This document shows, one piece after another, positions 45,466-47,022 of a stretch of DNA of 64,000 nt (within the stretch, counting starts at the first letter, position 1; every line of letters begins with the position of its first letter). Both the position numbers and the translations under genes were made by a program. The DNA is from Penicillium oxalicum. Its lineage: Eukaryota; Ascomycota; Eurotiomycetes; Eurotiales; Aspergillaceae. Below the pieces are notes generated by a model, which saw nothing but the letters and a program-made list of their open reading frames with translations, was not told the origin of the DNA and made no database searches. Location: assembly GCF_001723175.1 (NCBI RefSeq), contig NC_064650.1, positions 4,836,001 to 4,900,000 on the forward strand, written 5' to 3'.

Positions 45466-47022
45466 ATGCATCAATCCAGCACAACCCAACAGGGCCGGTG
45501 GTATGTAGCTGTGATATTCCCTCACATCTAAGTTTTGCTTTCAAGAGCTCACAAGCCATAGGAGGCACCTTTACAAGGTTCTGTCTAAGCCTGGCCCGCA
45601 CTGTGATGAAGACTGGGTTCCAGGATCAACGACAATCGAGACGCTTGAGTCTTCAAGGATTCTGTCAGTTGCCCCCCCCCCCCCCCCCCCCTGTATTAAC
45701 TGCAAATTCTAACACACATCGCAGTGTAATGTATTTCAAGCAATTGACTGGTCATTGTGAAGTGCATTTACTGAACGCATTTTAGCGGGGCTGGCGGACT
45801 TGGCTGTGAGATCCTCAAGAATCTTGCACTATCGGGATTCAAGGACATCCATGTGATTGACATGGGTAAGTTGTGGCTTTGGCGCATTTGAACCCCGAAG
45901 GTTAGCTGAGTATCTATCACAGATACCATCGGCATTTCTAATTTAAACCGACAATTTCTGTTTCGCCAATCTGATATTGGAAAGCCCAAAGCCGAAGTTG
46001 CTGCTGCTTTCGTAGAAAAGCGAGTGAAGGGAGTCAAGATTACGCCATTTGTTGGTAAGATTCAGGACAAAGATGAGGATTTCTACATGCAATTCAAAAT
46101 TGTCATCTGCGGTCTGGATAGCATTGAGGCTCGTCGGTGGATCAATGCAACGCTGATAGGGATGGTCGACCCCGAGGATCCCGAAAGTCTGAAACCTCTG
46201 GTCGATGGAGGAACTGAAGGTATGTCTAGGCGATAAAATCCAGGGGTAATATCTGCTGATCCAAAATCAGGCTTCAAGGGCCAGGCCCGTGTCATTTTAC
46301 CAACACTTACCTCTTGCATCGAGTGCCAGCTTGATATGCACGCCCCTCGCCCGGCAGTCCCACTCTGTACAATTGCAACCATTCCACGCCAGCCACAGCA
46401 TTGTATTGAGTGGGCGCATCAGATTGCGTGGCAGGACAAGAGAAAAGATGATTCCTTCGACAGTGATGACATGGAGCACATATCGTGGGTCTATCATGCT
46501 GCCTTGGAGCGCGCAGAGCAGTTCCACATCCACGGAGTGACGTTCCAAATGACCCAGGGCGTTGTCAAAAATATCATCCCGGCGATTGCATCGACTAACG
46601 CCGTGATTGCCGCGTCTACCACGTCGGAGGTACTGAAAATTGCCACGGGATGCAATCCTTATCTCGAGAACTATATGATGTACGCTGGTGAGGAGGGCGT
46701 CTATACCTACACCTTCGAGGCAGAAAAGAAACCGGACTGTCCAGTGTGTGGCAATCTCGCTCGCAAACTGGATGTGGATCCTGAAACAACGTTGGGCGAC
46801 TTTATTGAGAGCCTCGGTGAAAGAGCCGAAGCCCAGTTGAAAAAACCTAGCATGCGGACTGAAGAGAAGACCTTGTACCAGCGCTTCCCACCGCAGCTTG
46901 AAGAGCACACTAGGCCTAATCTGCGACTGAAGCTGCGAGACCTCGTGGAAGATGGAGAGGAAATCGCAGTTAGTGACCCAGCTTACACCATCGACTTCCG
47001 CTACCGCCTTACATTCAAATGA
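45466..47022 (+). CDS. uba3: NEDD8-activating enzyme E1 catalytic subunit Uba3
   Basis: Adenylates NEDD8/Rub1 and transfers it to Ubc12 for cullin neddylation, working as a dimer with Ula1. My model is exons 45466-45500, 45562-45663, 45725-45730, 45786-45865, 45923-46219 and 46271-47022, giving 423 aa. The start is MHQSSTTQQGRWRHLYKVLS. The 6-nt third exon (TGTAAT) joins SSRIL to GAGGLGCEIL as ILVIGAGGLGCEIL, restoring the Rossmann GxGxxG loop. Further motifs are SNLNRQFLFR, the catalytic cysteine in PLCTIATIPRQPQHCIEW, and zinc-type cysteines IEC and CPVC. The C-terminal ubiquitin-fold ends DFRYRLTFK. All introns are 51-61 nt with GT-AG ends, and CTAAC/CTGAC-like branch sites are visible in the two around the microexon. 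Intron 2 holds a C20 run. It is convergent with rpc40. Confidence 0.93.
45672..45691 (+). repeat. C20 homopolymer inside a uba3 intron
   Basis: Twenty consecutive C just after the donor of the intron preceding the uba3 microexon (intron 45664-45724). It is followed by TGTATTAACTG and a CTAAC branch-like site at 45709-45713. Confidence 0.9.

What the first reader, a model, noticed from the sequence alone, without database searches (positions are those of the whole stretch)
45664..45785. Six-nucleotide internal microexon in uba3
Joining exon 45562-45663 directly to 45786 would stay in frame but delete two residues of the nucleotide-binding strand (SSRIL-GAGGLG). Inserting the six bases TGTAAT at 45725-45730 gives ILVIGAGGLG, the expected ThiF/E1 Rossmann start. 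The microexon is flanked by introns of 61 and 55 nt with proper GT...AG ends and branch-like sites (CTAAC 45709-45713, CTGAAC 45771-45776). All exons then sum to 424 codons. A 6-nt exon is at the lower limit of what a spliceosome is known to include, and its upstream intron begins with a C20 tract that may help define it.
Basis: partly seen in the sequence, partly recalled or inferred. Interest (0 to 1): 0.78.

Follow-up and report, generated by a model that had tools for sequence, protein, structure and literature searches.

The report
Conserved six-base exon in uba3
In a Penicillium-like mould, six bases flanked by two small introns very probably form an exon of their own that supplies two residues of the nucleotide-binding strand of Uba3, the NEDD8-activating enzyme, and many database entries for related moulds seem to have missed it.

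Summary
Exon 45562-45663, intron 45664-45724 (61 nt), TGTAAT 45725-45730, intron 45731-45785 (55 nt) and exon 45786-45865 join in frame to ESSRILVIGAGGLG; the gene has six exons (424 codons with stop). Shuffles give such an insert in 44 of 20,000 cases.

The best new evidence is in relatives. Of 146 collected proteins, 115 carry LVI before GAGGLG, 26 lack exactly two residues and 5 carry another insert. No other column of residues 9-415 is empty in more than 3. The loss is scattered over the tree (21 changes for 26 cases; shuffled labels 23.9 on average). Two A. niger entries differ by nothing but these two residues. The loss also occurs in Onygenales. This is what gene finders would leave if they skipped a six-base exon shared by Eurotiales and Onygenales. 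No RNA reads and no DNA of relatives could be seen.

It is not at the lower limit of splicing: 1-nt and 3-bp exons are in print. C20 tracts are common in this genome. I rate it a new member of a known kind, probably old and overlooked.

The parts
45466..45500 (+). uba3 exon 1 (ATG start)
   Evidence: open frame joined to exon 2
45501..45561 (+). intron 1, 61 nt, GTATGT...TAG
45562..45663 (+). exon 2, ends ...AGG ATT CT (phase 2)
45664..45724 (+). intron 2, 61 nt, GTCAGT...CTAAC...CAG
45672..45691 (+). C20 tract inside intron 2; such tracts are common in this genome
45709..45713 (+). CTAAC, likely branch site of intron 2
   Evidence: motif recalled
45725..45730 (+). six-nt microexon TGTAAT: third base of L46, V47, first two bases of I48
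45731..45785 (+). intron 3, 55 nt, GTATTT...TAG
45771..45776 (+). CTGAAC, imperfect branch-like site of intron 3
45786..45865 (+). exon 4, begins C|GGG GCT GGC GGA CTT GGC (GAGGLG)
45866..45922 (+). intron 4, 57 nt
45923..46219 (+). exon 5
46220..46270 (+). intron 5, 51 nt
46271..47022 (+). exon 6 with stop codon; holds the rest of ThiF and the E2_bind domain

Best explanation
TGTAAT at 45725-45730 is a real, normally included exon of uba3 (NEDD8-activating enzyme catalytic subunit). It completes L46 and encodes V47 and most of I48, in the first strand of the nucleotide-binding fold just before GAGGLG. Splicing most likely works by intron definition: each flanking intron (61 and 55 nt, close to the 61, 57 and 51 nt of the other three) is recognised across itself and removed in turn, so the exon needs no length of its own. 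The same exon is probably shared by Eurotiales and Onygenales, and gene finders often skip it. Shown: anatomy, reading frame, homology, pattern of two-residue gaps. Inferred: inclusion in mRNA, order of splicing, shared ancestry of the exon.
For: Of the readings tried, only the microexon one restores the conserved strand. Human UBA3 1yov_B aligns without a gap over KVLVIGAGGLG. The Pfam ThiF score is 200.6 bits with the exon and 188.5 without. Of 146 relatives, the union of the 120 listed hits of each of three searches, 115 have LVI, 26 lack exactly two residues and 5 have another insert. Aligned columns 47 and 48 are empty in 26 of 146; every other column of 9-415 in at most 3. On a tree built without this stretch the loss needs 21 changes for 26 cases among 141 rows; 300 label shuffles need 19-26, mean 23.9, and 16 of 300 need 21 or fewer, so it is close to random, at most slightly clustered. 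A. niger P0060 and P0090 differ only by these two residues. Four skipped forms (P0050, P0084, P0086, P0090) match some intact form at every shared position. For P0050 (A. terreus) and P0086 (P. angulare) that form is P0035 and P0012, full-length open frames on contigs of 2912 and 1861 bases. All six proteins of source lgn only, on contigs of 1460-2912 bases, carry LVI; they are probably transcript assemblies (my reading of the tag and the lengths). Two skipped forms, P0026 and P0138, read F for L46, and no protein of the 146 has FVI; this fits an L codon TTR split by the intron and completed by C on skipping.
Against: No cDNA or RNA reads were available. No DNA of any relative could be read: scans of genome contigs and viral contigs gave no relative. 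Both donors depart from the usual fungal GTRWGT (GTCAGT, GTATTT; consensus recalled) and intron 3 has an imperfect branch site, though so do introns 1 and 4; some skipping or retention is possible. The 115 intact entries do not by themselves show a microexon; in some the residues may lie in a larger exon. Same-species entries appear to be from different strains or assemblies, and apart from the A. niger pair P0060/P0090 those compared also differ elsewhere (P0025/P0050: 3 substitutions; P0055/P0084: 1 substitution; P0014/P0086: 23 gap columns in all and 2 substitutions).
Confidence: 0.93

Rival explanations
1. Exon 2 joins exon 4 directly across one 122-nt intron, and this fungus and some relatives make a Uba3 two residues shorter.
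For: The joined frame is open and 26 of 146 relatives are annotated this way.
Against: The loss falls in a conserved nucleotide-binding strand, is spread over the tree nearly as shuffled labels are and is the only difference between two A. niger entries. The intron would be about twice as long as the gene's other three, and would hold a fitting insert by a chance of about 44 in 20,000.
Confidence: 0.03
2. The microexon is real but its inclusion is regulated (a special case of the best explanation, not exclusive of it): skipped and included mRNAs are both made, giving active Uba3 and an impaired form, a switch on neddylation.
For: Six is a multiple of three, both donors are off consensus, and both forms appear in databases. 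A regulated 20-nt microexon is known in Trichoderma Xlr2 (PMC11121469, passages).
Against: No transcript evidence of skipping was seen. The six lgn-only open frames, probably transcripts, all include the residues.
Confidence: 0.05
3. The two residues come from a non-canonical splice, for example a shifted non-GT donor of a single intron.
For: A six-base extension of exon 2 would also keep the length.
Against: Read by hand, the extension gives L-S-V-G, not L-V-I-G, and the intron would begin with TG. Neither of the two GT-AG single-intron readings that keep the frame restores the residues.
Confidence: 0.01

Closest known systems
Small conserved plant microexons (1-15 nt; APC11, VPS55), PMC8831610 (passages)
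   Same: Tiny internal exons in conserved proteins, kept over long times and widely missed by annotation.
   Different: Plants, confirmed by RNA-seq and RT-PCR; here a filamentous ascomycete and sequence evidence only.
20-nt microexon of Xlr2 in Trichoderma, PMC11121469 (abstract and passages)
   Same: Microexon in a filamentous ascomycete, missed by gene models, within a conserved domain.
   Different: 20 nt, switched by glucose and shown by RNA-seq; here 6 nt, in frame, probably always included.
6-bp exon of Phanerochaete P450 genes, PMC1184071 (passages)
   Same: Exon of the same size in a fungus.
   Different: A basidiomycete gene family, gene-structure survey; here one gene, with the pattern over relatives examined.
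3-bp mini-exons of NACHT-ANK genes in Tuber melanosporum (as cited in PMC9815663, and PMC4986451)
   Same: Codon-sized exons in an ascomycete.
   Different: Dozens, alternatively spliced to vary a recognition domain; here a single one in an enzyme core.

Membership tests
UBA3, NEDD8-activating enzyme E1 catalytic subunit | ThiF domain followed by E2_bind domain | tested here: met
   PF00899 200.6 bits, PF08825 104.8 bits, both over cut-off
UBA3, NEDD8-activating enzyme E1 catalytic subunit | Closest solved structures are UBA3 | tested here: met
   the best eight distinct sequences (of 60 shown of 71) are UBA3/E1C, one of them a fusion, E 1.6e-136 or lower; the next is a ubiquitin E1 at E 3.6e-46
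Internal microexon (30 nt or less) | Short segment with AG before and GT after, flanked by introns of normal size | tested here: met
Internal microexon (30 nt or less) | Included in mature mRNA | not testable with these tools
   No RNA reads of this species held; indirect support
Internal microexon (30 nt or less) | Conserved in relatives at the DNA level (not required of a microexon, but part of the claim here) | tested here: inconclusive
   Only proteins seen; DNA scans gave no relative
Switch-like (regulated) microexon | Inclusion changes with condition | not testable with these tools
   No expression data

The most novel reading that the evidence does not exclude
The six-base exon has been kept across Eurotiales and Onygenales because its in-frame skipping is used: a conserved splicing switch that makes a fraction of Uba3 without the full nucleotide-binding strand and so tunes neddylation.
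Probability: 0.05. Interest if true: 0.75.

Novelty: new member of a known kind. Interest (0 to 1): 0.42.

Why it matters
If true, a six-base exon in an enzyme central to neddylation has been kept in at least two orders of Eurotiomycetes, while 31 of the 146 collected database proteins carry a probably wrong form at that point. It offers a clean, single-gene test of how fungal spliceosomes handle exons too small for exon definition, and a marker for checking gene-prediction pipelines. It also suggests that recurrent two-residue gaps in predicted proteins can reveal overlooked microexons from protein databases alone.

Tried and rejected
The idea that the C20 tract is a special signal was dropped. 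I looked at other ThiF loci of the genome for an intron at the same place: L001 and the gene in L004/L005 run through the motif without one; L002, L006 and L007 gave no clear answer, L008 showed no motif, and none was pursued. Alternative boundaries were enumerated and rejected because none gives the conserved strand. A single intron with an alternative donor could explain two-residue gaps in some relatives if it lay in phase 0 after I48; the window's two introns here are phase 2, and the L to F change in P0026 and P0138 fits phase 2. This is reasoning, not a test. No structure prediction was run.

Paper searches on microexons and on Uba3 in Aspergillus showed no report of a uba3 microexon in the titles and abstract starts listed; two searches listed only 20 of 22 and 15 of 380 papers. 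One search looked for a survey of fungal introns; it was not among the 8 of 80 papers listed. The reference list of PMC11121469 cites, among papers on fungal microexons, one on hsp70 of Penicillium marneffei, which I did not see; so an earlier microexon report in Eurotiales may exist.

Full report
What was checked. It is a Uba3: ThiF and E2_bind domains both pass their cut-offs, and the best eight solved sequences are UBA3/E1C. Among the nearest named relatives are Penicillium macrosclerotiorum (94% identity) and P. brasilianum (92-93%), so the host is very probably a Penicillium.

The six bases. TGTAAT at 45725-45730 has CAG before it and GTATTT after it. It completes L46 and gives V47 and most of I48; both introns are in phase 2. 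I enumerated GT-AG readings with two introns, with sites between 45640 and 45800 and introns of at least 35 nt: four keep the frame to the end, and only one gives SSRILVIGAGGLG. One of the other three uses the same six bases with an earlier donor. With one intron, two readings keep the frame and neither restores the strand. Shuffling the region while keeping its dinucleotides gives an insert with two V/I residues in 44 of 20,000 cases. Retaining either intron brings a stop within 20 codons.

Relatives. Three protein searches each listed the best 120 of about 6,000 hits among about 8,000 scored candidates, which together make 146 proteins, all used. Of these, 115 carry LVI before GAGGLG; 26 go straight from L (24) or F (2) to GAGGLG; 5 have other letters there (LVS twice, LTAYS, FTAYR, and RLLTPLR). 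As a control, I counted gaps over the whole alignment: within residues 9-415 the columns 47 and 48 are empty in 26 of 146, and no other column in more than 3. Insertions relative to the window do occur at other exon junctions, after residues 74 and 173, so gene models err at other introns too, but by adding letters. On a tree of the part after GAGGLG, the 26 losses among 141 rows need 21 changes (quick tree without mixture). Shuffled labels need 23.9 on average, and 16 of 300 shuffles need 21 or fewer: nearly random, perhaps slightly clustered.

Same or nearly same proteins with and without. A. niger P0060 and P0090 differ in nothing but the two residues. P0084 (A. tubingensis), P0050 (A. terreus) and P0086 (P. 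angulare) each match an intact form at all shared positions (P0057, P0035, P0012). P0035 and P0012 are unnamed full-length open frames on contigs of 2912 and 1861 bases, probably transcripts. A. luchuensis has intact (P0056) and wrong-insert (P0085) entries. All this fits annotation errors at a six-base exon better than a real loss.

Age. Of 16 proteins from Onygenales, 8 are intact, 7 lack the two residues and 1 has another insert; the order was looked up for Arachnomyces, Uncinocarpus and Nannizzia, is in the record's name for P0136, and is recalled for the others. Of the remaining 130 (Eurotiales by recalled genus, or unnamed), 107, 19 and 4 (by subtraction). So the unit is probably older than the split of these two orders. 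This rests on proteins only; no relative's DNA was seen. Two skipped forms, P0026 (P. argentinense) and P0138 (Uncinocarpus reesii), show F in place of L46, as expected if their codon is TT plus a base from the microexon, becoming TTC on skipping; no protein of the 146 has FVI. That is weak in numbers but pointed in kind.

How it works. Under intron definition, splicing depends on intron length, not on exon length, and Prp40 is reported to be needed for inclusion of exons too small to hold enhancers (PMC8624252, passages). The two introns are of the gene's usual size, whereas skipping would require pairing sites 122 nt apart. The likely course is removal of one intron, which lengthens the exon, and then of the other. 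That order is inferred. Both donors are off consensus (recalled), so leaky skipping or retention would not surprise; retained forms carry early stops and would probably be degraded (inference).

Six nt is not near the limit (PMC8831610; PMC9815663; PMC1184071), and poly-C tracts are common in this genome: 13 C or G runs of 10 or more in the window, 1286 forward and 944 reverse overlapping C20 matches genome-wide.

Standing in the literature. A 2024 paper states that functional microexons had not been described in filamentous fungi before its 20-nt case (PMC11121469, abstract and passages), though it cites earlier predicted ones and one tested in S. pombe. My searches on microexons and Uba3 listed no uba3 microexon; I saw listings and passages, not whole papers, two listings were partial, and the library lacks most subscription journals. 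I therefore file it as a new member of a known kind.

Noticed in passing
45931-45933 (residue 78) and 45656-45658 (residue 44): The window protein has G78 where all 146 collected relatives have D (MDTIDISNLNRQF) and R44 where all 146 have K. Both look like A-to-G changes at the middle base of the codon; real substitutions or base errors, not resolved.
   Followed up: partly
whole window; own genome: Long C and G runs are frequent: 13 runs of 10 or more in 64 kb and 2230 overlapping C20 matches on both strands of the 30.8 Mb genome.
   Followed up: partly
junctions after residues 74 and 173 of Uba3 in relatives: Some database proteins carry extra residues at these two exon junctions (42 and 39 residues in all), probably retained introns or wrong boundaries; P0086 has GIA before DTID.
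   Followed up: no
47302-48180 (-): Open frame of 292 residues that looks like the shared RNA polymerase I/III subunit RPAC1 (recalled, not searched), tail to tail with uba3.
   Followed up: no
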